Positions 10,031 to 47,785 of a stretch of DNA of 64,000 nt are shown one piece after another. Source of the stretch: Scylla paramamosain. Its lineage: Eukaryota; Arthropoda; Malacostraca; Decapoda; Portunidae. The number at the start of each line of letters is the position of its first letter. Position 1 is the stretch's first letter. The DNA lies in contig NC_087197.1 in the NCBI RefSeq assembly GCF_035594125.1, positions 8,788,110 through 8,852,109 of the forward strand. The letters are read 5' to 3'. The position numbers and the translations under genes are program-made. The notes under the pieces were generated by a model, which saw only the letters and a program-made list of their open reading frames with translations, made no database searches and was not told the origin of the DNA.

Positions 10031-10055
10031 AGAACATAAGAACATAAGAAATAAG
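10031..10055 (-). repeat. LINE 3' tail, short tandem repeat
   Basis: On the + strand the element edge reads as repeats of AGAACATA followed by AGAAATAAGGG. On the coding strand this is a TTCTTATG-type microsatellite at the extreme 3' end. It takes the place of a poly(A) tail and marks the 3' boundary of the LINE. Confidence 0.75.
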
Positions 10056-10114
10056 GGAAGCTGCAAGAAGCGACCAGGCTTACACGTGGCAGTCCCTGTA
10101 TGAAACACTCCTAC

Positions 10115-10870
10115 CTATTTCCACCTATCATCCCCATCCATAAACTTGTCTAATCTTCTCTTAAAGCTCTCTAGTGTCCTAGCACTAACTACATGATTAC
10201 TGAGTCCGTTCCACTCATCTACCACTCTATTCGAGAACCAATTTTTTCCTATCTCCTTCCTAAACCTAAATTTTTCAAGCTTGAACCCGTTATTTCTTGT
10301 TCTACCCTGGTTGCTGATCCTAAGAATTTTGCTTACATCTCCCTTGTTATAACCCTTATACCACTTAAAGACCTCTATCAGGTCCCCTCTTAACCTACGT
10401 CTCTCTAGAGAATGTAAATTTAACCGCTTCAACCTCGCTTCGTAAGGAATACTCCTCATCCCCTGTATCCTTTTAGTCATTCTCCTCTGTACTGATTCTA
10501 ATAGACCTATATCTTTCCTGTAATGTGGGGACCAGAACTGCACAGCGTAGTCTAGATGAGGTCTGACCAGCGCCAAGTATAACTTTAATATTACCTCCGG
10601 CCTTCTACTTTTAACACTCCTAAAAATGAATCCTAGTACCCTATTTGCCTTGTTTCTGGCTTCTATGCATTGTTTCCCTAGACGGAGTTCAGAGCTAACT
10701 ATAACTCCTAAATCTTTCTCGTACCCTGTACCTACCAGAGTTTGGGTGTTTAATGTGTACCTATTGTGTGGGTTTCCTCTACCTACGCTAAGCACTTTGC
10801 ATTTATTGATATTAAATTGCATTTGCCATCTATCCGTCCATTCATTCATTCTATCTAAGTCTGTCTGCAA
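10115..10870 (-). pseudogene. Reverse-transcriptase polyprotein, C-terminal fragment (LINE)
   Basis: About 251 codons are open without internal stops. The first residue is not a real start: the codon is TTG (Leu) at the truncation point, and the frame would continue upstream in an intact element. Recognisable landmarks are an NEWTDRW...NKCKVL stretch (residues 9-26), KDLGVIVSS (52-60), LVRPHLDYAVQFWSP (101-115), LESVQRRMTKRI (124-135) and RRRLRGDLIEVFKWYKGY (157-174). Together these are typical of the segment just after the reverse-transcriptase active site in CR1/Jockey-group LINEs. The catalytic YxDD-type motif and any endonuclease domain lie upstream and are absent, so the fragment cannot support transposition. 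The open frame with no stop suggests a fairly recent insertion. It has no gene neighbours, as satellite flanks it on both sides. Confidence 0.88.
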
Positions 10871-11163
10871 TACATGTTTCTCGTCATGTCCTTTTGTTTC
10901 CCAAATATAAGGTTCTTTGCATGTATTTAAGCGTTTTTATAAATAACATGATCAAAAACACTGAAAATACATGTATTTGGTAATGTTTTTCTGTTTCTCC
11001 ATAAAATGTATTTTGCATGCGTTTTAGCGTTTTGGTATATAAGGAGCTCAAAAACATTTAAAGGCATGTTCTTGGTAAAATTTGGTTTTATTCCCATGTA
11101 ATGTGATTGCCCTGGCTTTTAGTGCTTTATTTTCATAACACGCTCAAAAAACACTAAAAAAAC

Positions 11164-11642: not shown

Positions 11643-13419
11643 CAAAAACACTAAAAGGCAAGTTCTTCGTAAAAAGTGGTTTTATTCCCATGTAATGTGA
11701 TTGCCCTGCTTTTTAGTGCTTTATTGCCTAACAGTCTCAAAAACACTCAAAGACACTTTTCTGGTAATGTCATTTTCCCATATAAAACTAATTTCGCATG
11801 GAATTTGGGATTCTGGTAACTAAGAATGTAAAAAAACACTCAAAATACACGCATTCAGTAAGGTTGCTCTGTTTCTTGATTAAGAAAGTTATTCATGAGT
11901 TTCAGCATTTTGGTATCTTGAAAACTTCTCCACACATACGAGTTTTTGCGTTTTTTGCCTTGTGATTCTGGTGAAACTATAAAACACTCATTATACACGT
12001 TTTTTGTTATGTCCTTTTTTTTCCTAATATACAGTGCTTTCCATCCATTTTTGTGTTTTTTTATGTAACAAGATAAAAAACACATAAAATATACTTTTCT
12101 GTTAATATTATTCTATTTTTTCATATTGGTTGGTTTGCATCCGTTTTAGCGTGTTTTAACGTAAATCTTTTAAAAGAGACGTTTTCAGTAATTTTGTTTT
12201 GGATTTCCATATAGAGTGAATTTCATATTATCTATCGTTTTGGTACCTAACATGCGAAAAAAACACTCAAAAGACAGGTTTCTTGTAAAGTCGATAAATT
12301 TTCCCAAATAGGTGGCTTTGCATACAGTTTATGGTTTGGTACATAACTCCGAAAAAAGGTAAAATTATCTTTTTCGATAAGGTTCTTTTTTCCACATAAT
12401 TTCCCTGAATTTTTACAGAATTTTGGCATCTTGGTACCTATGAATATCAATAACAAAAGAATAAAAATGCTATTTTTTTTCTCTATAAACAGTGTTATTT
12501 GTAGGTTTTAACGTTTTGGTACTTAAGGAACTTAAAAACATTCATAATACACATTTCTCGTAATGTCCTTTCGTTTCCCAAATATAGGGATCTTTGGATG
12601 TATTTAAGTGTTTTTATAGGTAACATGATAAAAAACACGTTTCTCGTAATGTCCTTTTGTTTCCCAATAGGGAGTCCTTTGCATCCATTTTCGCGTTTTT
12701 TGTAGGTAACAAGGTCAAAAACACTCAAAATGTACCTTTTTGGTAATGTTATTTTATTTCTTCCTATTGGTTGGTTTGCATCCGTTTTAGCGTTTTTCTA
12801 CGTAAAACACCGAAAAGACACGTTTTCAGTAATTTTGTGTTAGATTCCCATATAGAGTGACTTGCACGTTATTTACCGTTATGGTGCCTAACAAGTTGAA
12901 AAACATTCATAACACAGTTTTCTGGCAAAGACGTTTAATTTCCCCATATAGGTGGGTTTGCATGCACTTTTTTTTTTTTATTTATTTATTTTTCTCAATA
13001 AAGAGTGTTATTTTTGGCTTTTAGCTTTTTGATAAATAATGATCTTAAAAACACTCGTAATACACGTTTCTCGCAATGTCCTTTAATTTCCTAAAAAAAG
13101 GGTTCTTTGCATGTATTTAAGCGTTTTTATTGGTAACATGATCAAAAACACTCAAAATATATGTTTTTGGTAATGCTATTCTCTTTCTCCATGAAGTGTG
13201 CTTTGCATGCGTTTTAGCGTTTTGGTATATAAGGAGCTCAAAACACTTAAAGGCAAGTTCTTGGTAAAAATTGATTTTACTGCCATGTAAAGTGATTCCC
13301 ATGCTTTTTAGTGCTTTATTGCCTATCAAGCTCAAAAACACTCAAAAGACACTTTTCTGGTAATGTCGTTTTTTTCCCACATAAAGCTGGTTTCGCATGT
13401 AATTTGGGATTTTGGTAAC

Positions 13420-13535
13420 TAAGAATGTGAAAAGCACTCAAAATACACGCATTTAGTAAAGTTGCTCTGTTGCTCAATTAAGAATGTGAAAAGCACTCAA
13501 AATATACGCATTTAGTAAAGTTGCTCTGTTGCTCA
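13420..13535 (+). repeat. 59-bp tandem duplication, second super-unit
   Basis: Two copies begin with TAAGAATGTGAAAAGCACTC at 13420 and 13479 (period 59 bp). They match 2586-2701, with a base change in the second copy (ATACAC to ATATAC). Confidence 0.9.
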
Positions 13536-15626
13536 GGGAGGAGCACTTCAGGAGTTTCAGCATTTTCGTATCTAGGAATCTTCTCCATATACACGAGTTT
13601 TTGCGTTTTTTGCCTTGTGGTTCTTTTAAACTATAAAACATTCATTATACACTTTTCTCGCAATGTCCCTTTGTTTTCCAATATAGAGTGCTTTGTATCA
13701 ATTTTCGCGTTTTTTTTTTTTTAGGTAACAACATCGAAAACACTCAAAATATACCTTTTTGGTAATGTTTTTCTACTTCTTGATATTTGTTTTTTTCCAT
13801 CCGTTTTAGCGTTTTTCTACGTAAAACACTGAGAAGACACGTTTCCAGTAATTTTGTTTTGGTTTGCCATAGAGAGTGAGTTCCATATTATTTATCGTTT
13901 TGGTGCCTAACATGCTGAAAAACACTCAAAACACAGATTTCTGGTAAGGTCGTTTAATTTCCTCATATGGGAGGCTTTGAGTGCACTTTAGTGTTTGGTA
14001 TATAAAAGTCCGAAAAAAAGCTAATATCAACTTTTTTTTTACAATATTCTCTTATCATATAATTGCCCTAATTTTTCCTGGAATTTTGGCCTCTTGGTAC
14101 CTATGAAGGTTAATAACAAAAAAGAAAAGAAAAACCTTTCGTTTATTTATTTATTTTTTTTTTCTAAATAACGAATGTTATTTGTGGGTTTTAGCTTTTT
14201 GGAAGTTAAGGAACTTAAAAACACTCATAATACACGTTTCTCGTAATGTCCTTACGTTTCCCAAGCATAAGGTTCTTTGCATGTATTTAAGCGTTTTTAT
14301 AGATAACATTGTCAAAAACACTCAAAATACATCTTTTTGGTAATGTTATTCTGGTTCTCCATAAAGTTTGTTTTGCATGCGTTTTAGCGGTTTAGTATAT
14401 AAGGAGCTCAAAAACACTTAAAGGCAAATTCTTTGTAAAAGTTGGGATTATTCCCATGTAATGTGATCGTTCTGCTTTTAAGTGATTTGTTGCATATCAC
14501 GATGAAAAACACTCAAAAGACACTTTTCTGGTAATGTCATTTTTTTTTCCCAAATGATGGTAGTTTCACATGTAATTTGGCATTTTCGTAACTAAGAATG
14601 TGAAAAACACTCAAAATACTCAATTTGGTAAGGTAGTTCTGTTAATCGATTAAAAATGTTATTCATGCATTTATTCATTTTGATATGTAAAAAATATCTC
14701 TATATAGACGAGTTTTTGCATTTATTGCCTTGTGATTCTTTTAAAAACTATAAAACACTCATTATACACGTTTCTCGTAATATCCTTTTGTTTCCTAATA
14801 AAGAGTGCTTTACATCGATTTTTTTGCATTTTTTGTAGGTAACAAGCTCAAAAACAATCAAAATATATCTTTTTGGTAATGTTATTCTATTTCTTCATAT
14901 AGGATGGTTTGTATCCGCTTTAGCGTTTTTCTACGTAAAACACTGAAAGGACACGTTTTCAGTAATTTTCTTTTGGATTCACATATTGACTGACTTCCAT
15001 ATTATTTATCGTTTTGGTGCCTCACATGCTGAAAAACACTGAAAAGACAGGTTTCTGTTAAAGTCCTTTAACTTCCTTATATAGGTGGCTTTGCATGCAT
15101 TTTAAGGTTTGGTACATAACAAACCGAAAAAAAAGCTATAATTAACTTCTATGATAATATTCTTTTTTCCACATAAATTCCGTGAATTTTGGCAGAATTT
15201 TGGCATCTCGGTACCTATGAAGATGAATAATCAAAAAAAAATTCCCATTTTTTTCATTTATTTATTTTTCAAAAGAGTGTTATTTGAGGGTTTTAGCTTT
15301 TTTGGTACTAAAGGAAATTAAAAATCACTCATAATACACGTTTCTCGTAATGTTCTTTCGTTTCCCAAAAATAAGGTTCTTTACATGTATTTAAGCGTTT
15401 TTATACATAACATGATCAAAAACACTCAAAATACGTGTATTTTGTAATGTTGTTCTGTTTCTCCATCAAATGTATTTTGCATGCGTTTTAGCGTTTTGGT
15501 ACATAAGGAGCTCAAAAACACTTAAAGGTAAGTTCTTGGTAAAATTTGGTTTTATTCCCATGTAATGTGATTGCCCTGGCATTCAGGGCTTTATTGCGTA
15601 ACACGCTCACAAACACTTAAAAGACA

Positions 15627-16079
15627 TGCAAAGCCTCCCATATGAGGAAATTAAAGATCTAACAAGAAATATGTCTTTTCAGTGTTTTTCAGCATATTAG
15701 GCACCAAAACGATAAATAATAAGGAACTCACTCTATGTGGGAATCCAAAAGAAAATTACTGAAAACGTGTCTTCTCAGTGTTTTACGTAGAAAAACGCTA
15801 AAACTGATACAAACCAACCAATATCAAGAAGCAGGATAACATTACCAAAAATGTATATTTTTGAGTGTTTTTGTGCTTGTTTCCTACAAAAAAAAAACAC
15901 GAAAATTGATACAAAGCACTCTATATTGGGAAACAAAGGGACATTGCGAGAAAAGTGTATAATGAATGTATTATAGTTCAAAAAAACCACAAGGCAAAAA
16001 ACGCAAAAACTCGTGTATATGCTGAAACTCTTCAATAACACTCTTAATTGAGAAACAGAACAACCTTACTAAATGCGTG
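15627..16079 (-). repeat. Inverted satellite module 4
   Basis: It is the counterpart of module 2 in the second super-unit, with the same junction strings (AAGACA then TGCAAAGCCTCCC on the left, AAATGCGTG then TCAAAAACAC on the right). Its mirror partner in palindrome I is 26703-27154. Confidence 0.85.
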
Positions 16080-19000
16080 TCAAAAACACTAAAAGGCAAG
16101 TTCTTCGTAAAAGTTGGTTTTATTCCCATGTAATGTGTTTATCCTGCTTTTTAGTGCTTTATTGCCTAACACGCTCAAAAACACTCAAAGACACTTTTCT
16201 GATAATGTCATTTTTTCCTACATAAAGCTAGTTTCGCATGGAATTTGGGGTTTTGGTAACTAAGAATGTAAAATAACACTCAAAATACACGCATTTAGTA
16301 AGGTTGTTCTGTTTCTTGATTAAGAGTGTTATTCATGAGTTTCAGTATTTTGGTATCTTAGAAACTTCTCCATATAGTCGAGTTTTTGCGTTTTTTGCCT
16401 TGTGATTCTGGTGAAACTATAAAACAGTCATTAAACACGTTTCTCGTTATGTCCTTTTTTTTTTTTTTTACTTATATAGAGTGCTTTGCATATATTTTCG
16501 CATTTTTTTTTATGTAACAAGCTCAAGAACACACAAAATATATATTTTGGTAATGTTATTCTATTTCTTCATATTGGTTGGTTTGCATCTGTTTTAGCGT
16601 TTTTCTACGTAAATCTTTAAAAAAGACACGTTTCCAGTAATATTGCTTTGGATTTCCATATAGAGTGACTTTCATATTATTTATCGCTTTGGTGCCTAAA
16701 ATGCTTTTTATTGCCTTTTGCCTCCCAATATAGAGTGCTTTCCATCCATTTTCGCGTTTTTTTGTAGGTAACAATATCAAAAACACTCAAAATATACGTT
16801 TTTGGTAATGTTATTCTATTTCTTCATTTTGGTTGGTTTGCATCCGTTTTAGCGTTTTCTACGTAAAACACCGAAAAGACACGTTTTCAGTAATTTATTT
16901 TTGGATTCCCATATAGATTTACTTCCTTGGGTTTTATCGTGTTGGTTCCTAACATGCTGAAAAACCCTCATAAGTCAGTTTTCTGGCAAAGACGTTCAAT
17001 TTCCCCATATAGGTGGCTTTGCATGCAATTTAGGTGTTTGGTACATGAGTCCGAAAAAAAAGCTAAATGTAACTTTTTTGATAATGTTCTTTTTTTTATA
17101 TAATTTCCTGAACTTTGCCCGAATTTTGGCACCTCCTTACCTGTGAAGATAAATAAGAATGAAAAAAAAATATCGTATTTTTTTATTTATTTATTTATTT
17201 TTTCTCAATAAAGAGTGTAATTTGTGGCTTTTAGCTTTTTCGTACTTAATGAACTTAAAAACACCCATAATACACGTTTCTCGTAATGTCCTTTCGTTTC
17301 CCAAAAATAGGTTTCTTTGCATGTATTTAAGCGTTTTTATTGGTAACATGATCAAAAACACTCAAAATACATGTTTTTGGTAATGTTATTCTGTTTCACC
17401 CTAAAGTGTATTTTGCATGCATTTTAGTGTTTTGGTATATAAGGAGCTCAAATACACTTAAAGGCAAGTTCATGTTAAAAATTGGTTTTATTTCAATGTA
17501 ATGTGATTGCCCTGCTTTTTAGTGCTTTATTGCCTAACTCGCTCAAAAACACTCAAAAGACATTTTTCCGGTAATGTCATTTTTTTCCCACATAAAGCTG
17601 GTTTCGCAAGCAATTTGGGATTTTGGTAACTAAGCATGTGAAAAGCACTCAAAATACACGCATTTAGTAAGATTGTTCTGTTTCTCAATTAAAAGTGTTG
17701 TTCCAGACTTTCAGCATTTTGGAATGTAAGAAACTTCTCTATATACACGAGTTTTTGTGTTTTTTGCCTTGTAGTTCTTGTGAAACTATAAAACACTCAT
17801 TATACACGTTTCCCGTAATGTCCTTTTGCTTTCCATCTATTTTCGCGTTTTTTGTAGGTAACAATTTCAAAAACACTCAAAATATACCTTTTTGGTAATG
17901 TTATTCTATTCATTCATATTAGTTGGTTTGCTTCCGTTTTATCATTTTTCTACGTAAAACACCGAAAAAACACGTTTTTAGTAATATTGTTTTGGATTCC
18001 CATATAGACTGACTTTCATGTTATTTATCGTGTTGGTTCCTAAGATGCTGAAAAACTCTCATAAGACCGTTTTCTGGCAAACTCGTTTAATTTCCCCATG
18101 CACTTTAGGGGTTTGGTACAAAATTTTCCGAAAAAAAAAAACTAAACTTAACTTTTTTGATAATGATCTTATTTCACATAATTTCCTGAATTTTGCCCGA
18201 ATTTTGGCATCTCGGTACCTGTGAAGATGAATAAGAAAGAAAAAAATATCGTATTTTTTATTTATTTATTTATTATTTCTCAATAAAGAGTGTTATTTGT
18301 GGCTTTTAGCTTTTTGGTAATTAATGAACTTAAAAACACTCATAATATACGTTTCTCGTAATCTCCTTTCCTTTCTTAAGAATAGAGTTCTTTGCATGTA
18401 TTTTAGCGTTTTCATTGGTAACATGATCAAAAACACTCAAAATATATGTTTTTGGTAATATTATTCTGTTTCACCATAAAGAGTGTTTTGCATGCGTTTT
18501 AGTGTTTTGGTATATAAGGAGCTCAAAAAACACTTAAAGGCAAGTTCTTGGTAAAAATTCGTTTTCCTCCAATGTAATGTGATTGCCTTCCTTTTTAGTG
18601 CTTTATTGCCTATCACGCTCAAAAACACTCAAAAGACACTTTCCTGGTAAAGTCATTTTTTTTTCCCACAAATCTATTTTCGCATGCAATTTGGGGTTTT
18701 GGTAACTAAGAATGTGAAAAGCACTGAAAATACACGCATTTATTAAGGTTGTTCTGTTTCTAAATTAGGAATGTTATACATAAGTTTCAGCATTTTTGTA
18801 TCTAGGAAACCTCTCCATATACACGAGATTTTGCGTTTTTTGCCTTGTGGTTCTTTTGAACTATAAAACACTCATTATATACTTTTCTTGCAATGTCCTT
18901 TTGTTTTTCAATATAGAGTGCTTTGCATCAATTTTCGCGTTTTTCGTAGGTAATAAGCTCAAAAACACTCAAAATATACCTTTTTAGTAACGTTTTTCTA

Positions 19001-31629: not shown

Positions 31630-32126
31630 AAAAATCATCATAGCCTTTTGTAAATTTTACTCAAAGTGTGTAACCATATGGTAAATGATGAGGCGAAGTT
31701 TCATCATGGTATCTGTAAAGGAAAAAATATGAAAATTAAAAAACTTGTAAAAAAGAGTACTTTAGAAATTGAATAATTCCTTAGTAATATGAGTCCAGAA
31801 ATCATTCACACTAAAGTTGTGTGTATACTAGAAGGGTTAATCTTCAATGCCTGTTTGCTAGTTTTCCCAAAAAATAATGATATACCTCTAATACATTTCA
31901 ATGAAAAACTGCATACCCGACATCATGAATAATAGAATTTTTTTAAATATATAATATATATATTTTTAAAAAGTAAGTAACAATTTTTGTAGAAAATTCA
32001 TTCACACAAACACACAAAAAAAATCAAGGAAATCGGTTGATAAATAAGAAAGTTATTTTGACTTAGAAGCGCTTACCTATAATTTGAGAAAAGAGGCTCT
32101 GAAGTTCTGGGAGTGTCGCTGCATGG
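31630..32126. other. Non-coding 3' region of the DNA transposon
   Basis: AT-rich sequence lies between the left terminal repeat and the transposase stop codon. It includes a TA-rich run near 31955-31985. It has no satellite monomers and no supported gene. It would form the 3' untranslated part of the transposase transcript. Confidence 0.7.
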
Positions 32127-32713
32127 CTAATGCGCACCAGATGCATATGCCTCCAGGTCCTTTTGCAGCTGTTTGCTTCTGATCTTCTTCTTGATCGGCC
32201 TGTCCATTTTGGTGTTTTCCTTTGTAAGGTATTTGTAGTTCTTGTCTGTGAAGGCCACTCCCAACTTACTGCACAGGTCGCTAGAAAGATATCCTCCATT
32301 GAAGTTGGACACCGCCTGTGCAGTTGCGAAGTCCAGCATTTCCTTCGTGGCATTTTTGTGCTTTGAGCAGTAGCGCCATATTCTGTGGTGTAATGACTCA
32401 TTGGGATTTTGAGTCTTCCCTCTGAGGCACCTCGTCATCATATCATCAGTTGTTAGCCTTTTGTAGACATCTTCTACTAGCCTCAGTCCTTCAGGATCCA
32501 ACCAGAATTTTATCTTCATAGTGGAATGGCTGGGTGGAGTGTTGCCCTTTGACAGAGCTTTTTGGTAGAAGCACCAGGATTCTTCAGATTTGGGGCAAAG
32601 GTTATGCTTGGGGTTCTCATCTGTAGAGGAGCAGTGGTAAAAAGAAGACATGATGTCATTTCGCATCTCCTCGGGAGTTGTATTGATAGTGTTGCATACA
32701 CTATCATTATTGT
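32127..32713 (-). pseudogene. Transposase C-terminal fragment (Mutator-like transposase domain family)
   Basis: The frame is open from the deletion junction near 32713; the first methionine is at 32666, giving 179 codons to the stop. From that methionine, visible landmarks are MRNDI (1-5), SSTDENPKHNLCP (13-25), SEESWCFYQKA (27-37), CLRGKTQNPNESLHHRIW (80-97) and a basic tail (about 157-169) ending in YASGAH. This order is characteristic of the arthropod transposase-derived proteins with a Mutator-like domain that I recall. The upstream in-frame residues NNDSV...TTPEEMRNDI fit the same family, so the methionine is internal, not a true start. The fragment is in a different frame from the N-terminal piece, so no joined product is expected. 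Product function cannot be retained without the missing catalytic core. Confidence 0.78.
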
Positions 32714-33127
32714 TATTTCATATATTCCTTTTTCCTTACTTTTGTGGTCTTCAGCAGTGTCTTTTGCTATATATGAACACTTTGTACACACAATTTTGAA
32801 GCTACTGTCTGCATGTTTTCTCGTGAATATGCACTTCATCTTCTCAAAACACTCAGGGCAGCACACATTCGATGCAAGTTCTTCTAAGCTTTGTTTCTTC
32901 AAAAAGACATTTTCTTGTGTTACCACTGGTATATCAGATTCTTTTGTCAAAAGGTTCTTCCTCTTCACGCTGGATGGTGATGGTGACATGCTGGGTGGTG
33001 GTGGTGGTGGTGACTCACTGCTTGTGGTCACGCGGGCATCAACACTCGGCGTCTGCTTTTTCTTCTTTTCTCTTGCCGCTTTTAGGTTCAGTCGGCTCTG
33101 CTTCACTCCCTTCTTTATTCTAGCCAT
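32714..33127 (-). pseudogene. Transposase N-terminal fragment with zinc-ribbon-like cysteines
   Basis: The frame starts at ATG 33127 and can be read to about residue 138 before it leaves the family-like sequence. Residues 1-25 are strongly basic (MARIKKGVKQSR, then a Lys-rich run), residues 39-52 are proline and serine rich, and residues 90-117 hold paired cysteines (CPEC ... CTKC) spaced like a zinc ribbon. A KEKGIYEI-like stretch near 131-138 is where intact relatives would run into the catalytic region. Instead, the sequence switches frame into the C-terminal fragment near 32710, consistent with an internal deletion of several hundred bases. The start is chosen because it is the first ATG after the 5' leader and precedes the basic region. 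An antisense frame of 194 codons over the same DNA is its shadow. Confidence 0.72.
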
Positions 33128-33550
33128 CTTCAGAAGAGTAAGGTGATGTAGCTACGTAGAAGTGCTAAAGAGTGCTAAAAGAGAAGTAATGATGCTGATC
33201 AGAGCAACACACCCTCCTTTCTTTCTCAACAGCCCGCCGCGGGCTACTGACTGTGAGACACCCCTCACTGCCCTCAGTGACTGCTTAGAGGCTTGCCTGA
33301 CGGGTGATGCTAGATTCGCCACAAAAAAAATTACAAAAATCTTCAAAAAATCAAGAAAAAATAGATGAGAAATGCAAATTTCTCGGATGTCAACGTAGAC
33401 CTTTAAATCACTCGCTGAGCACATGGGTTGGTTTAAATGCCGCTCAGAGGCATTTAAACGCTTCTCAGAGCCATACCACGCTTCTGAGGTATTGCCAAAG
33501 TGTTGATTATTTATGAGGGACGATCACCCTAAAACTCCAAAATTGCTTGA
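33128..33550. other. 5' leader region of the DNA transposon
   Basis: This is the region upstream of the transposase start on the minus strand. It is less AT-rich than the satellite. Between about 33410 and 33490 it has a repeated motif with GCTCAGAG/CTTCTCAGAG next to CATTTAAA. It should contain the element promoter, but no confident box can be named. Open frames on both strands here lack any recognisable domain. Confidence 0.6.
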
Positions 33551-39748: not shown

Positions 39749-42700
39749 CACGCATTTAGTAAGGTTGTTCTGTTTCTTAATTAAGAGTGTTATTCATGAG
39801 TTTCAGCATTTTAGTATTTAGGAAGCTTCTCCATATACACGAGTTTTTGCGTTTTTTGCCTTGTGGTTTTTTTGAACTATAAAACACTTATTATACACTT
39901 TTCTTGCAATGTCCTTTTCTTTCCCAATATAGAGTGTTTTGCATAAATTTTCGCGTTTTTTGTAGGTAAAAAAGTAGCTCAAAAACACTCAAAATATACC
40001 TTTTTTTTAACGTTTTTCTATTTCTTGATATTAGTTGGTTTCCATCCGTTTTAACGTGTTTCTACATAAAACACTGATAAGACACGTTTTCAGTAACTTT
40101 GTTTTGGATTCCCATATAGAGTGAGTTCCTTATTATTTATCGTTTTTGTGCCCAACATGCTAAAAAACACTAAAAACACAGATTTCTGGTAAGGTCGTTT
40201 AATTTTGCATGCACTTTAGGGTTTGGTATATAACAGTCCGAAAAAAAAGCTGAAATTAACTTTTTTTGATAATATTCTTTTATCACATAATTGCCCTGAA
40301 TTTTCCCAGAATTTTGGCATCTCTGGCATTCCATTTCTGGAATTTTGGCATTTGGCACCTTTGAAGATGAATAACAAAAAAAAAATATTTATTTTATTTT
40401 TTTATTTATTTATTTTATTTTATTTATTTTTTTAATAAACAGTGTTATTTGTGTGTTTTAGCTTTTTTGGTACTTAAGGAACTAAAAAAAAACACTCATA
40501 ATACACGCTTCTCGTAATGTCCTTTTGGTTCCCAAACATAATGTTCTTTGCATGTACTTAAGCGTTTTTAAAGATAACATGATCAAAACCACTAGAAATA
40601 CATGTTTTTGGTATATGTTATTCTGTTTCTCTATAAAGTTTGTTTTCCATGCGTTTTAGGGGTTTGGTATATAAGGGGTTAAAAAATTCATCGTAAAAGT
40701 TGGTTTTGTTCCCATGTAATATGATCGTTCTTATTTTTAGTGCTTTGTTCCATATCACGCTGAAAAACACTCAAAAGACACTTTTCTGGTAATATCATTT
40801 TTTTTTCCCACATGAAGCTAGTTTCGCATGTAATTTGGCATTTTCGTAACTAACGATGGGAAAAACACTGAAAATACACAATTTGGTAAGGTAGTTCTGT
40901 TTATCTATTAAAAGTGTTATTCATGTATTGATTCATTTTGGTATGTAAGAAATTTCCCTATATACACGAGTTTTTGCGTTTATTGCCTTGTGGTTCTTTT
41001 AAAACCATAAAACACTCATTATACACGTTTCTCGTAATGTCCTTTTGTTTCCTAATATAGAGTGCTTTACATCCATTTTTGCATTTTTTGTAGGTAACAA
41101 GCTCAAAAACACTCAAAATATATCTTTTTGGTAATGTCATTCTATTTCTTCATATAGGATGGTTTGTATCCGCTTTAGCGTTTTTCTACGTAAAACACTG
41201 AAAAGACACGTTTACAGTAATTTTCTTTTGGATTCATATATTGACTGACTTCCAAATGATTTATCGTTTTGGTGCCTAACATGCTGAAAAACAATGAAAA
41301 GAGAGGTTTCTGGTAAAGTCGTTTAACTTTCCTATATAGGTGGCTTTGCATGCTGTTTAGGGTTTGGTACATAACAATCCGAAAAAAAAGCTATAATTAA
41401 CTTATATGATAATGTTCTTTTTTCCACATAAATTCCCTTAATTTTGGCAGAATTTTGGCATCACGGTACCTATGAAGATGAATAACAAAAAAAAATCCCA
41501 TTTTATTATTTTTTTATTCATTATATATATATTTTTTTTTCTAAAGAAAGTTATTTGTGGGTTTTAGCTTTTTGGTACTGAAGGAACTTAAAAATCACCT
41601 ATAATACACGTTTCTCGTGATGTTCTTTCTTATCCCAAACATAAGGTTCTTTGCATGTATTTAAGCGTTTTTATAGATAACATGATCAAAAACACTCAAA
41701 TGTAATGTAATTCTGTTTCTCCATTAAATGTATTTTGCATGAGTTTTAGCGTTTTGGTACGTAAGGAGCTCAAAAACACTTAAAGGAAAGTTTTTTGGTA
41801 AAATTTGGTTGTATTCCCATGTAATGTGATTGCCCTGGCTTTTAATGGTTTATTCCGTCCAAAACCTGAAAAGACATACAAAGCGTCCCATATGAGGAAA
41901 TTAAAGACCTTACCAGAAATCTGTCTTTTGAGTGTTTTTCAGCATGTTAGGCACCAAAACGATAAATAATAAGGAACTCACTCTATGTGGGAATCTAAAA
42001 GAAAATTAGTGAAAACGTGTCTTTTTCAGTGTTTTACGTAGAAACACGCTAAAACTGATACAAACCAACCAATATCAAGAAGCACAAAAACATTACCAAA
42101 AATGTATATTTTGAGTGTTTTTGAGCTTGTTACCTACAAAAAAAACGGAAAAATGGATACAAAGCACTCTATATTGGGATACAAAGGGACATTGCGAGAA
42201 AAGTGTATAATAAATGTTTTATAGTTCAAAAAAACCACAAGGCAAAAAACGCAAAAACTCGTGTATATGCTGAAACTCATGAATAACACTCTTAATTGAG
42301 AAACAGAGCAACTTTACTAAATGCTTGTCAAAAACACTAAAAGGCAAGTTCTTCGTAAAAGTTGGTTTTATTCCCACGTAATGTGATTGCCCTGCTTTTT
42401 AGTGTTTTATTGCCTAACACGCTTAAAAACACTCAAAGACACTTTCCTGCTAATGTCATTTTTTTCCCACATAAAGCTAGTTTCGCATGGAATTTGGGGT
42501 TTTGGTAACTAAGAATGTAAAAAAAACACTTAAAATACACGCATTTAGTAAGGTTGTTCTGTTTCTTGATTACGAGTGTTATTCATGAGTTTCTGTATTT
42601 TGGTATTTTAGAAACTTCTCCATATAGTCGAGTTTTTGCGTTGTTTGCCTTGTGAATCTGGTGAAACTACAAAACACTCATTATACACGTTTCTCGTTAT

Positions 42701-43202
42701 GTCCTTTTTTTTTCCTTATATAGAGTGCTTTGCATATATTTTCGCGTTTTTTTTTATGTAACAAGCTCAAGAAAACAAAATATATTTTTTGGTAATGTTA
42801 TTGTATTTCTTCATATTGGTTGGTTTGCATCCGTTTTAGCGTTTTTCTACGTATATCTTTTAAAAGACACGTTTCCAGTAATTTTGTTTTGGATTTCCAT
42901 ATAGAGTGAGTTTCATATTATTTATCGTTTTGGTGCCTAACACGCTTTTTGGTGCCTTTTGCCTCCCAATATAGAGTGCTTTCCATCCATTTTCGCGTTT
43001 TTTGTAGGTAACAATTTCAAAAACACTCAAAATATACATTTTTGGTAATGTCTATTTCTTTATTTTGGTTGGTTTCCAACCGTCTTAGCGTTTTCTACGT
43101 AAAACACCAAAAAGACACGTTTTCAGTAATTTTGTTTTGGATTCCCATATAGACTGACTTCCTTGGGTTTTATCGTGTTGGTTCCTAACATGCTGAAAAA
43201 CC
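39749..43202 (+). repeat. Satellite block 5a, plus orientation
   Basis: Regular + units run from the flip at 39749 to the R2-like insertion, with one inverted module (41877-42328). A variant of monomer I at 40319-40360 contains a partial second copy of TTCTGGAATTTTGGCAT. No gene is supported. Confidence 0.9.
41877..42328 (-). repeat. Inverted satellite module 6
   Basis: It has the same position and junctions as modules 2 and 4 (AAGACATACAAAGCGTCCC on the left, ...AATGCTTG then TCAAAAACAC on the right). Its mirror partner in palindrome II is 60029-60485. Confidence 0.83.
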
Positions 43203-43281
43203 GGGAGTAACTATGACTCTCTGAGGTCCCGGGATGGTGTCATGCCGTGACTCCCCGAGTGACGTGAAAAACCTCTTTGAG
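43203..43281 (+). ncRNA. Candidate HDV-like self-cleaving ribozyme (R2 type)
   Basis: The 5' end can be laid out in HDV-like order. P1 pairs GGGAGT (43203-43208) with ACTCCC (43250-43255). P2 pairs CTC and GAGGT (43217-43219 and 43223-43227) with ACCTC and GAG (43271-43275 and 43279-43281). A possible P3 pairs CGG (43230-43232) with CCG (43245-43247). P4 is not convincing: only a 2-bp stem near 43256-43264 is visible. R2 elements of many animals are known to carry such ribozymes, some cleaving inside upstream 28S sequence. The fold here is by eye only. Confidence 0.5.
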
Positions 43282-43996
43282 ACTTAGTTACAGGGGAAGC
43301 CTGCCTCCTAGTGGCGCCCGCTGGAAACGTAGGCACAAGCCCGAGGGATTGGGCCTACGGCTAAAGTGCTTACCCCGCGAGATGAATGTGGGGCGGGGAG
43401 TTGGACAAATATTCCATCCTCCCTTCTCAATAAATGTTCATAGAGTAATGGGGCTCCGCCAGGCTTCGGAGCCCAGAACAGTTTCACTGGTCCGGAGTCC
43501 TTTCTGCTCCTTCGAGTTCTCTACCTCGTTGGGTGGTGGGCCGTCAGGGTGATTTGCCGAGTCGGTGGGCTAAACCCACTAACCCTCGACAGCGGTAGTC
43601 ACTCTGGCGTTTCCGGGATGACGGCCCGCTGGTTTGGGGGGTAGCGCTCTTCCTGCCCCCAAGGGCCAGCGGGTTCATGGCTTTGAAATGGGGTACACGG
43701 GGCGGATGCGGTCCCAGTCCCCCTCGGGTCTGAGGGGCGTGCATAGAGCCTCCGTGCACGTCCTCTCAGACCCAGAGCGTCCTAGCAGAGCTCGTAGTCT
43801 GCGAACGGTTTGTCATGCTGCGGTGGGCCTAGTAGCTCAGGTAGCCAACCGTCTGGCTGAGGGTGGCGTCCTCAGAACCGGAATCCTGTCGGGGGCGACC
43901 TCGGCAGGTAGGTTTCGCATCGCCTGTGCCGTTGAAGACGGTAGGCGTGAGTAGTGCTGGCTTTAGCCCGCTACCCTATCGTCCCCTCCAAAGGGG

Positions 43997-44058
43997 TAAT
44001 TCTTGCCGCCGGTGCCGGCTGCTTGGTAAACAAGCGCCGGTGAACGGCGGCAGAATTA
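43997..44058 (+). other. Strong stem-loop at the 3' end of the R2-like insertion
   Basis: The outer stem pairs TAATTCT and GCCGCC (43997-44010, one bulged T) with GGCGGC and AGAATTA (44046-44058). The inner stem pairs CCGGC-T-GCTTG (44015-44025) with CAAGC-GCCGG (44031-44040) around the loop GTAAA. It resembles the structured 3' ends that R2-type reverse transcriptases recognise, but it could also act as a terminator-like or purely structural element. Confidence 0.7.
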
Positions 44059-46184
44059 AGTATGACGTTTAATTTCCCCATATAGGTGGCTTTGAATGCA
44101 ATTTAGGGGTTTGATACGTAAGTCCAAAAAAAAAAGCTAAATGTAACTTTTTTGATAATGTTCTTTTTTTATATAATTTCCTGAACTTTGCCCGAATTTT
44201 GGCACCTCCTTACCTGTGAAGATGAATAAGAATGAAAAAAAAATATCGTATTTTTTTATTTATTTCTTTATTTTTTTTCTCAATAAAGAGTGTAATTTGT
44301 GGCTTTTAGCTTTTTCGTACTTAATGAACTTAAAAACACTCATAATACACGTTTCTCGTAATGCCCTTTTGTTTCCCAAAAATAGGGTTCTTTGCATGTA
44401 TTTAAGCGTTTTTATTGGTAACATAATCAAAAACACTCAAAATACATGTTTTTGGTAATGTTATTCTGTTTCACCATCAAGTGTATTTTGCATGCATTTT
44501 AGTGTTTTGGTATATTAAGGAGCTTAAATACACTTAAAGGCAAGTTCTTGTTAAAAATTAGTTTTATTTCAATGTAATGTGATTGCCCTGCTTTTTAGTG
44601 CTTTATTGCCTAAAACGCTCAAAAACACTTGAAAGACATTTTTCTGGTAATGTCATTTTTTCCCACATAAAGCTGGTTTCGCTTGCAATTTGGGGTTTTG
44701 GCAACTAAGGATGTGAAAAGCACTTAAAATACACGCTTTTAGTAAGATTGTTCTGTTTCTCAATTGAAAGTGTTGTTCCAGAGTTTCAGCATTTTGGAAT
44801 GTAAGAAACTTCACTATATACACGAGTTTTTGCGTTTTTTGCCTTGTAGTTCTTGTGAAATTATAAAACACACATTATACACGTTTCTCGTAATATCCTT
44901 TTGCTTCCCAATATAGAGAGCTTTCCATCTATTTTCGCGTTTTTTGTAGGTAACAATTTCAAAAACACTCAAAATATACCTTTTTGGTAATGTTATTATA
45001 TTCCTTCATATTGGTTGGTTTGCATCCGTTTTAGCGTTTTTCTACGTAAAACACCGAAAAGACACGTTTTTAGTAATATTGTTTTGGATTCCCATATAGA
45101 TTGACTTCCATATTATTTATCGTGTTGGTTCCTAAGATGCTGTAAAACACTCATAAGACCGTTTTCTGGCAAAAACGTTTAATTTCCCCATATAGGTGGC
45201 TTTGCATGCACTTTAGGGGTTTGGTACATAATAGTCCGAAAAAAAAGCTAAATTTAACTTTTTTGATAATGTTCTTATTTCACATAATTTCCTGAATTTT
45301 GCCCGATTTTAGTATCTCGGTACCAGTGAAGATGAATAAGAAAGAAAAAAAATATTGTATTTTTTTTTTATTTATTTATTGTTTCTCAATAAAGAGTGTT
45401 ATTTGTGGCTTAAAGCTTTTTGGTAATTAATGAAGTTAAAAACACTCATAATACACGTTTCTCGTAATCTCCTTTCGTTTCCCAAAAATAGTGTTCTTTG
45501 CATGTATTTAAACGTTTTCATTGGTAACATAATCAAATGCACTCAAAATATATGTTTTTGGTAATATTATTCTGTTTCACCATAAAGAGTGTTTTGCAGG
45601 CGTTTTAATGTTTTGGTATATAAGGAGCTCAAAAACACTTAAATGTAAGTTCTTGGTAAAAATTCGTTTTCCTCCAATGTAATGTGATTGCCCTCCTTTT
45701 TAGTGCTTTATTGCCTATCACGCTCAAAAACACTTAAAAGACATTTTTCTGGTAAAGTCATTTTTTTCCCCACAATTCTATTTTCCCATGCAATTTGGGG
45801 TTTTGGTAACTTAGAATGTGAAAAGCACTCAAAATACACGCATTTATTAAGGTTGATCTGTTTCTCAATTAGGAGTGTTATACATAAGTTTTAGCATTTT
45901 TGTATCTAGGAAACCTCTCCATATACACGAGATTTTGCGTTTTTTGCCTTGTGGTTCTTTTGAACTATAAAACAATCATTATGCACTTTTCTTGCAATGT
46001 ACTTTTGTTTACCAGTATAGAGTGCTTTGCATCAATTTTTGCGTTTTTTGTAGGTAATAAGCTCAAAAACACTCAAAATATACCTTTTTAGTAACGTTTT
46101 TCTATTCCTTGATATTGGTTGCTTTCCATCCGTTTTAGTGTTTTTCTACGTAAAACACTGAGAAGACACGTTTTCAGTAACTTT

Positions 46185-46220
46185 GGATTCCCATATATAT
46201 ATATATGGATTCCCATATAG
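46185..46220 (+). repeat. Local 22-bp duplication around a TATATA run
   Basis: GGATTCCCATAT occurs at 46185 and again at 46207, separated by a TA run, within monomer G. The reverse complement of the same oddity is at 54565-54600, which makes it a clean marker for palindrome II. Confidence 0.9.
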
Positions 46221-47785
46221 AGGTGAGTTCCTTATTATTTATCGTTTTGGTGTTTAACATGCTAAAAACACTCAAAACACAGATTTCTGGTAAGGTCGTT
46301 AAATTTCTTTATATAGGAGGCTTTGCATGCACTTTAGGGTTTGGTACATAACTGTTTGAAAAAAAAAGCTGAAATTAACTAATTTCATAATATTCTTTTA
46401 ATATACGATTGCCCGGAATTTTCCAAGAATTTGGGCATCTCGGTACTATGAAGATGAATAACAAAAAAAAAAAAAAAAAATTCCTATTTTTTATGTATTT
46501 TTTTTTTATTTTCTAAATAAAGAAAGTTATTTGTGGGTATTAGCTTTTTGGTACTGAAGGAACTTAAAAAACACTCATAATACACGTTTCTCGGAAAGTC
46601 CTTTTGTTTCCAAAACATAATGTTCTTTGCATGTATTTAAACGTTTTTATAGATAACATGATCAAAAAACGCTCAAAATATATGTTTTTGGTAATGTTTT
46701 TCTGTTTCTCCATAAAGTTTGTTTTGCATGCGTTTTAGCGGTTTGTTATATAAAGAGCTCAAAAACACTTAAAGGCAAGTTTTTTGGTATAAATTGGTGT
46801 TATTCCAATGTAATATGATTGCCCTCCTTTTTAGAGCTTTAGTGCCTATCACGCTCAAAAACACTCAAAAGGCACTTTTTTGGTAATGTCATTTTTTCCC
46901 ACATAAAGTTAGTTTTGCATGCAATTTTTGGTTTTCGTAACTAAGAATGTGAAAAGCACTAAAAATACATGCATTTGGTAAGGTTGTTCTGTATTCTTAA
47001 TTAACAGTGTTATTTCTGAGTTTCAGCATTTTGGTATCTAAGAAACTTCTCCATATACATCGAGTTTTGCGATTTTTGCCTTGTGGCTGTTGTGAAACTA
47101 TAAAACACTCATTATACACGTTTCTCGTAATGTCCTTTTGTATCCCAATATAGAGTGCTTTCCATCCATTTTCGCGTTTTTTGAAGAAAAAAGCTCAAAA
47201 ACACTCAAAATATACCTTTTTGGTAATGTTATTCTATTTCTCCATATTCGTTGGTTTGCATCCGATTTAGCGTTTATCTACGTAAAACACTGAAAAGATA
47301 CTTTTTCAGTAATTTTGTGATGGATTCCCACATTTAGTGACTTCCATATTATTTATCGTTTTGGTGCCTAACATGCTGAAAAAAAAACACAAAAGACATG
47401 TTTCTGGTAAGGTCGTTTAATTTTCCCCATATAGGTGGCTTTGCATGCACTTTAGGGTTTGGTACATAACAGTCCGAAAAAAAGCTAAAATTAACTCTTT
47501 TTCATAATGTTCTTTTTTCACACAATTACCCTGAATTTTGGGCAGAATTTTAGCATCTCGGTACCTATGAAGATGAATAAAAAAAAATCCTATTTTTCTA
47601 TTTATTTATTTTTTTTTCTCTATAAATAGTGTTATTTGTGGGTTTTAGCTTTTTGGTACTTAAAGAACTTAAAAACACTCATAATACACGTTTCTCGAAA
47701 TGTCCTTTCGTTTCCCAAACATAAGATTCTTTGCATGTATTTAAGCGTTTTTATAGGTAACATGATCAAAAACACTCAAAATACA

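What the first reader, a model, noticed from the sequence alone, without database searches (positions are those of the whole stretch)
43203..44063. R2-like insertion outside rDNA that starts with 28S rRNA sequence
The first 20 bases of a GC-rich 861-bp insertion match the 28S rRNA segment immediately before the R2 target site, yet the insertion sits in a satellite. R2 elements are normally restricted to 28S genes. A ribozyme-processed R2 RNA keeps a short 28S leader, so this looks like an off-target R2 event or a short non-autonomous R2 derivative. It also replaced about 25-30 bp of satellite, which points to an unusual integration.
Basis: partly seen in the sequence, partly recalled or inferred. 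Interest (0 to 1): 0.78.

Follow-up and report, generated by a model that had tools for sequence, protein, structure and literature searches.

The report
Escaped self-cleaving R2-like jumping element
An 861-base non-coding insert in a satellite repeat is one of many scattered copies of a short jumping element that carries a piece of ribosomal RNA gene at each end and what looks like a self-cutting RNA, suggesting that parasites normally confined to ribosomal genes can have a short hanger-on that lives elsewhere.

Summary
Window 43203-44063 is a GC-rich insert starting with 20 bases of 28S rRNA; it replaced 24 bp of satellite. It belongs to a family: a search of the same genome returned 42 matched stretches (92-100% identity), and the ribozyme core motif occurs at 187 places (reversed control 1). 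Of 36 independent fetched loci, 33 begin within the 28S leader and 13 exactly at 28S -28, the start I had predicted because the insert's P1' strand CCCGCU pairs with 28S GGCGGG, and the commonest published R2 ribozyme cleavage site. An HDV-like ribozyme layout follows. The 3' end is a diverged 28S segment (-46 to +6) spanning the R2 target. No coding content was found. R2 of at least three lineages sits in this genome's assembled 28S genes, and one broken R2 lies off-target with a -28 start. Best reading: a non-autonomous element copied through RNA, probably by R2-type machinery, like a Drosophila R2 SIDE but dispersed outside rDNA. Against it: the Rfam HDV score is below its cut-off, unconstrained folds do not show the ribozyme, and no R2 sharing its body was found. 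Self-cleavage, helper and source loci remain unproven.

The parts
43203..44063 (+). the inserted element copy, 861 bp, non-coding; the fullest copies have 3 more bases at 5' (GGC) and about 19 more at 3' (GACTCTCTCAAGGTAGCCA)
43203..43222 (+). 28S leader, 28S positions -25 to -6 (from -28 in 13 of 36 independent fetched loci)
   Evidence: numbering follows PMC3774820
43223..43292 (+). J1/2 region of the ribozyme; GTAACTA of the leader (43207-43213) can pair with TAGTTAC (43285-43291)
   Evidence: z only -1.12, not significant
43293..43302 (+). ribozyme P2 5' strand GGGGAAGCCT, pairs with 43365-43376 with two single-base bulges
43303..43315 (+). ribozyme P3 / L3 / P3' GCC TCCTAGT GGC
   Evidence: 10 of 11 letters of the conserved R2 motif CCUCCUCGUGG quoted in PMC5035012
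43317..43324 (+). ribozyme P1' CCCGCU (pairs with 28S GGCGGG, G.U at the cleavage site) followed by GG (P1.1)
43328..43359 (+). ribozyme P4 hairpin CGTAGGC...GCCTACG
43360..43376 (+). J4/2 GCTAA with the putative catalytic C (43361), then P2 3' strand AGTGCTTACCCC
43377..43996 (+). structured body (whole-insert fold z -5.83, 0 of 20 shuffles as stable); a hairpin at about 43726-43773 has a compensated pair among copies
43997..44059 (+). 3'-terminal hairpin with three double-changed pairs among 34 copies
44028..44066 (+). diverged 28S-derived 3' terminus (28S -46 onward; fuller copies run on to about +6, TAGCCA), overlapping the hairpin; GAC 44064-44066 is shared with the satellite
42603..43202 (+). 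5' flank, satellite
44064..47500 (+). 3' flank, satellite; 24 bp missing at the joint relative to empty copies

Best explanation
It is a copy of a non-autonomous, non-coding retroelement derived from, or parasitic on, the R2 group. Shown from sequence: the RNA-sense strand carries a 28S leader, an HDV-like ribozyme layout whose P1 5' strand is the 28S leader itself, a structured body, and a 3' end made of diverged 28S sequence spanning the R2 target. Inferred: a longer transcript cuts itself at 28S -28; R2-type reverse transcriptase copies the RNA, starting in the 28S-like tail where it can pair with a nicked target; the finished cDNA, ending at or near -28 and often with extra A (seen as T on the top strand), is joined to the upstream side with small target deletions or duplications. 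Because the leader travels with the RNA, a full-length copy outside rDNA has both strands of P1. The window copy lost the first 2-3 bases and has 5 of 6 P1 pairs, so it is probably a poor or dead ribozyme.
For: The start GGCGGG was predicted from P1' pairing in a note written before any other copy was seen (reread); that this is -28, the most frequent R2 cleavage site, came from PMC3774820. 13 of 36 independent fetched loci then proved to begin exactly there. Ribozyme descriptor: 8 of 50,000 shuffles match with 28S-paired P1 and 633 with any P1; the insert's site is the only match in the window, both strands. Of 14 ribozymes picked for divergence, all pair 9-11 bp in P2 and 13 have a P4 of 4 bp or more, with different letters, e.g. 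P4 CGTAGGC/GCCTACG, CGGGG/CCCCG, TGGGG/CCCCA. 8 of 295 predicted pairs show changes on both sides among 34 copies. 3' 28S segment: 83.6% over 55 nt, E 3.7e-10. An R2 outside 28S (L068) also starts at -28 and ends in a 28S-like tail. T precedes -28 in 11 of 13 fetched loci (background T 0.35, P 3e-4) and in 15 of 17 with four more found by a -28 pattern, where 28S has C; L045 and L013 have 5 and 3 T not in the satellite. L018 joins two copies tail to leader, as template jumping would. Copies are young: median 1.1% from consensus in 42 (biased to best matches).
Against: Rfam's HDV model scores 19.9 bits, E 3.4, gathering score 50; the long J1/2 could explain this, but it is not a pass. The unconstrained folds do not form P2 and P3 of the ribozyme: the consensus fold forms P4 but pairs the core with distant body sequence; those programs cannot show pseudoknots. 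The conserved core among diverged copies is partly by construction, since L080-L089 were found by that motif and all 14 were picked with it. P2 is scored leniently: with strands swapped between the two ribozyme groups one direction still pairs 0-10 bp (12 of 24 reach 10), the other only 2-4, and shuffled 5' strands reach 9 in 3.4%. The double-changed pairs have no null control and the copies are related. The descriptor was loosened after its first version missed the site. 23 of 36 loci do not start at -28. No R2 with this ribozyme or tail was found, though only part of the R2 copies was read. All 6 assembled 28S upstream flanks found carry R2, none this element, and no uninserted 28S site is assembled. 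The leader's lack of shared changes is not significant (P 0.32). Self-cleavage was not tested.
Confidence: 0.8

Rival explanations
1. DNA-level capture: pieces of R2-bearing rDNA were pasted into breaks in the satellite and elsewhere by repair or recombination, without an RNA step.
For: 24 bp deleted with 1-3 nt microhomology and no duplication is repair-like; some copies share flanks and so probably spread by duplication (L022/L025/L026, L040/L041, L043/L044).
Against: Independent loci share one 5' end at -28 (13 of 36) and a common 3' limit at TAGCCA (9 of 36 end there, 1 runs one base further). DNA fragments would be expected to have scattered ends and to carry more 28S.
Confidence: 0.06
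2. A SINE or other element of an unrelated LINE (for example the CR1-like LINE in the window) that merely contains 28S pieces.
For: The body has no nucleotide similarity to the fetched R2 stretches; insertion sites are dispersed.
Against: R2-type ribozyme layout with a 28S P1 at the R2 site -28, and a 28S-like tail over the R2 target as on the off-target R2 L068. The insert shows no match to the window LINE (E up to 10).
Confidence: 0.1
3. One-off off-target insertion of a standard R2 SIDE that normally lives in the 28S genes.
For: R2 SIDEs exist in Drosophila 28S genes (PMC3414825); rDNA is hardly assembled here, so such masters could be hidden.
Against: 36 independent fetched loci, 34 exact tails and 187 cores, with copies at 70-91% identity, make a long-lived dispersed family rather than one accident. 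Masters in rDNA remain possible.
Confidence: 0.2

Closest known systems
R2 SIDE (Short Internally Deleted Element) of Drosophila, PMC3414825
   Same: short, non-coding, R2-type ribozyme at the 5' end, presumed use of R2 machinery
   Different: Drosophila SIDEs sit in the 28S gene at the R2 or R1 site and share 3' ends with R2 or R1; this family is dispersed, keeps a 28S leader as P1, ends in 28S-derived sequence, and no R2 with the same 3' end was found
R2 ribozymes cleaving at 28S -28 (earwig, Nasonia giraulti, silkmoth and others), PMC3774820
   Same: P1 5' strand supplied by 28S sequence, cleavage at -28, J1/2 insertions, L3/P1.1 core
   Different: here the copies read lie outside rDNA and the fullest carry the P1 strand with them; activity untested
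Fish R2 families with 28S-derived 3' UTR (R2Gs and relatives), PMC5035012 section 13
   Same: 28S-like segment in the element's own 3' end
   Different: those are R2 families in 28S genes of fish; this is a non-coding dispersed element
R2 and R1 copies outside 28S (Drosophila, PMC2718515; R2NS families, PMC5035012)
   Same: R2-type elements found outside rDNA; for R1, insertion often into repeats and 28S bases in the transcript proposed to pair with the target
   Different: this one is non-autonomous, with shared -28 ends

Membership tests
R2 SIDE | R2-type HDV-like ribozyme at the 5' end | tested here: met
   layout by sequence; controls mixed, Rfam below cut-off; activity not tested
R2 SIDE | no coding capacity | tested here: met
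   0 Pfam families in 9 of the 28 stop-free frames listed; the longest run of 110 codons is reached by 1224 of 2000 shuffles
R2 SIDE | 3' end shared with an autonomous R2 of the same genome | tested here: inconclusive
   only a 28S-like tail is shared with R2 lineage 1; no other similarity to the fetched R2 3' regions; not all R2 copies were read
R2 SIDE | inserted at the R2 (or R1) site of 28S genes | tested here: not met
   no fetched copy has a 28S gene flank; all 6 assembled 28S upstream flanks carry R2 instead; unassembled rDNA not testable
R2 SIDE | moved by R2 protein through TPRT | not testable with these tools
   inferred from ends and junctions only
HDV-like ribozyme | P1, P2, P3, P1.1, P4 nested double pseudoknot with catalytic C in J4/2 | tested here: met
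   complementarity at the right places; Rfam RF00094 below its cut-off and not seen in unconstrained folds
HDV-like ribozyme | self-cleavage | not testable with these tools
   none
autonomous R2 | ORF with zinc finger, RT and endonuclease | tested here: not met
SINE | RNA polymerase III promoter | not tested
   none

The most novel reading that the evidence does not exclude
The element has escaped rDNA altogether: dispersed copies are themselves the source, because each full-length copy carries the 28S leader that completes the ribozyme. Any read-through transcript from any promoter is then trimmed back to -28, so the leader is regenerated each cycle and a decoy 28S target in the tail recruits R2 protein. 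It would be an R2-dependent SINE-like element without its own promoter.
Probability: 0.35. Interest if true: 0.78.

Novelty: new variant of a known kind. Interest (0 to 1): 0.64.

Why it matters
R2 is a model for target-primed reverse transcription and a gene-insertion tool valued for its 28S specificity. A natural family of dozens to more than a hundred dispersed copies, with shared ends, target changes and microhomologies, is a ready record of off-target insertion. It makes testable what sets specificity, how second-strand joining works at sites without 28S, and whether a ribozyme that borrows its first strand from the host gene can become portable.

Tried and rejected
Chance 20-mer: rejected. 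Rfam at gathering scores gives nothing in the window; at lenient scores only a weak HDV hit, with ten other hits of E 1.5 to 8.8 taken as chance. My first ribozyme descriptor, requiring 5 unbroken P2 pairs, missed the site and its script then failed. I allowed up to two bulges and required 7 pairs; the 8-of-50,000 figure belongs to that post-hoc descriptor. The fold of the leader region alone is not significant (z -1.12). Viral-contig scans: no 28S leader; one 16-mer hit, judged chance. Coding remnant: none found. A test of whether the leader is renewed from 28S, by absence of shared changes, was not decisive (P 0.32). '285 candidates' was first read as hundreds of copies; the exact tail gives 34 and the core with up to 2 mismatches 187, of which only the first 100 places were listed. 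Search for an autonomous partner: 3' regions of six further R2-like RTs and two further 28S-flanked 5' ends did not match. The 34 exact tails: 31 lie at places, the other three at L071, L078 and L079, all this family. The host was not identified; 'decapod-like' is a recalled impression only. Also looked at without use: PMC13188248 (abstract, outline, passages; no 'non-autonomous' in it) and PMC10871703 (passages).

Rows dropped before counts: L025, L026, L041, L044 (share flanks with L022, L040, L043) and the fragments of L018, leaving 36 loci; copies aligned over less than about 820 bases and the same duplicates, leaving 33 plus L070 = 34 in A1; 14 of 32 distinct ribozyme segments, chosen for divergence, went into A2; L071, whose J4/2 is deleted, was left out there. 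The first 40 copies are the best-scoring ones, so divergence and completeness are biased. L068-L071 entered the 17-junction T count because a -28 pattern found them; without them it is 11 of 13. Satellite comparison: 9 of 39 rows gave a pair; the 94-base gap of L039 rests on 72-75% identity and was not used.

Full report
Observation. The 20-base 28S match is exact and not chance, the insert is GC-rich, and eight aligned paralogous satellite copies show the empty site with 24 bp lost. The window lies at G000:C47:8788110-8852109 of a 1.21-Gb genome in 234 contigs.

Anatomy. Downstream of the leader there is an HDV-like ribozyme layout. P2 is GGGGAAGCCT / AGTGCTTACCCC with two bulges, P3-L3 is GCC TCCTAGT GGC, P1' is CCCGCU, then GG, a P4 hairpin, and J4/2 GCTAA. 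The P1 partner I proposed is 28S GGCGGG, which in 28S begins 3 bases before the insert's first base; I noted this, and that the RNA should start there, before any other copy was seen (reread). That first G is 28S -28. Eickbush and colleagues (PMC3774820; abstract, the whole Results section and passages read) report R2 ribozymes whose P1 uses 28S sequence, with -28 the most frequent cleavage site. In shuffled inserts the descriptor with 28S pairing is met 8 times in 50,000, with the caveat that the descriptor was adjusted. Against this: Rfam's HDV model gives 19.9 bits against a gathering score of 50, and the unconstrained folds put the P2/P3 core into other pairs, though the consensus fold forms P4; these programs cannot draw pseudoknots.

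Family. A DNA search of the same genome returned 42 matched stretches at 92-100% identity, 40 of 285 candidates being scored; one is the window, three are one locus. I fetched 39 regions, besides the window copy (L002). Of 36 independent loci, 13 begin exactly at -28, 5 at -26/-27, 3 at -25, 12 further inside the leader and 3 in the body. The base before -28 is T in 11 of 13 of these (background T 0.35 in the same flanks, P 3e-4) and in 15 of 17 when four loci found by a -28 pattern are added; 28S has C there. The 3' tail reads ...TATGACTCTCTCAAGGTAGCCA: 9 of 36 end at TAGCCA, 1 runs one base further, and the others stop earlier in the tail or in the body. Some stops look like pairing with the target...CTCTCTC runs into a (TC)n tract in L012, and GGTA runs into TA-rich tracts in L016, L023 and L079; no control was run for this. 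The window copy stops at TATGAC, with GAC shared with the satellite. Exact 16-base tails number 34, control 0; ribozyme cores with up to 2 mismatches number 187, reversed control 1, first 100 listed. Ten regions around listed cores hold copies at 70-91% identity, and one of them (L086) also a second kind of element.

RNA structure. The whole insert folds far better than shuffles (z -5.83, 0 of 20). Among 34 copies, 8 of 295 predicted pairs show changes on both sides, three of them in the 3'-terminal hairpin. RNAalifold's covariation term is small (-1.33 of -384.85), as expected for young copies; no null control was run and the copies are related. Among 14 ribozymes chosen for divergence all pair 9-11 bp in P2 and 13 keep P4, with different letters, for example P4 CGTAGGC/GCCTACG, CGGGG/CCCCG, TGGGG/CCCCA, GGGGGACT/AGTCCCTC. 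Their conserved core is partly by construction, since the motif was used to find or pick them. The strand-swap control of P2 was mixed: 2-4 bp in one direction but 0-10 bp in the other. Exceptions: L048 lacks P4, L069 has one broken P1.1 pair, and L047 has changes in P3' and P1.1.

Ends made of 28S. Aligning with the host's own 28S shows the 5' leader at 100% (-28 to -6 in L010) and the 3' end as a diverged 28S segment from -46 to +6, 83.6% identical in L010 over 55 nt. The R2 target site is therefore mimicked inside the tail. Similar 28S-derived 3' UTRs were reported for some fish R2 (PMC5035012, section 13).

R2 in this genome. Four of the 15 exact 23-mers of the leader have true 28S flanks and are followed by R2 5' ends. 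With a 31-base 28S flank pattern there are six places; all six were read and all carry R2-type 5' ends, none the short element (L064-L067, L090, L091). By identity to the RT query, R2 in 28S falls into at least three lineages: C38 (the query, with L064 and L068 as nucleotide relatives), C233 at 60% and C6 at 45-48%. Lineage 1 ends in ...ACTCTCTTAAGG before TAGCC or TATCC, while L072 on C233 has no such tail. L068 is a broken R2 of lineage 1 outside 28S that starts at -28 and ends ...GTGACTCTCTTAAGGT, so R2 itself has gone off-target with the same kind of ends. The RT search scored 90 of 18,700 candidates, so R2 was only sampled. Because no uninserted 28S site is assembled, rDNA-resident source copies can be neither shown nor excluded.

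Integration. Where the satellite gives the empty site (9 of 39 rows), changes run from a deletion of about 24-28 bp in the window copy to a short duplication in L028. L045 and L013 have 5 and 3 extra T before GGC. L018 is two copies, the first internally deleted, joined tail to leader; L014, L036 and L042 have the tail followed by its inverted copy. These fit template jumping and snap-back by a reverse transcriptase; this is inference. In vivo template jumps by R2 are in the abstract of PMC3414825.

Comparison with print. Searches brought up R2 SIDEs inside rDNA (PMC3414825; first of six parts and passages read), R2 copies outside 28S in five Drosophila species (PMC2718515, passages) and two non-specific R2 families (PMC5035012, passages and section 13). 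None of these listings described a dispersed ribozyme-bearing R2-type element with 28S at both ends; I read only the papers named, and subscription journals are mostly missing from that library.

Verdict. A new variant of a known kind. What is shown: the family, its shared ends, the 28S origin of both ends, and a ribozyme layout kept in diverged copies, with the limits stated. What is inferred: self-cleavage, R2 as helper, and whether sources are in rDNA or dispersed.

Noticed in passing
window 1-64000: Most of the window is a diverged AT-rich satellite with a higher-order structure in both orientations, e.g. 38357-43201 matches 63993-59146 inverted at 93%, and 2134-7368 matches 12969-18232 direct at 97%.
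   Followed up: partly
window 10043-10880: Minus-strand fragment resembling the C-terminal part of a CR1/RTE-type LINE reverse transcriptase (recalled; 273-aa frame at 10115-10936, no Pfam match at 0.01).
   Followed up: partly
window 32100-33500: Non-satellite block with a 211-aa and a 196-aa minus-strand frame and no Pfam match at 0.01; may be a decayed mobile element or processed gene.
   Followed up: partly
L068 (G000:C13:15766600-15776500): A broken R2 of about 3.8 kb outside 28S that starts at 28S -28 and ends in ACTCTCTTAAGGT.
   Followed up: partly
L064, L065, L067, L072, L090: Several R2 lineages coexist in the assembled 28S genes, with differing ribozyme P1' strands (CCCACT or CTCCC in L064/L065, CTCCTGCC in L067 and L090) and different 3' ends.
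   Followed up: partly
G000:C48: 15 of the 100 listed ribozyme cores lie on one 8-Mb contig, and the list was cut there; L080, L081 and L082 sit next to (AT)n and look like local duplicates.
   Followed up: no
L014, L036, L042: Element tail followed directly by its own inverted copy, a snap-back-like 3' junction.
   Followed up: partly
L069 and L086 (first element): A second, diverged ribozyme-bearing family with the same P1' and core but different J1/2, P2 and P4; L069 starts at -28.
   Followed up: partly
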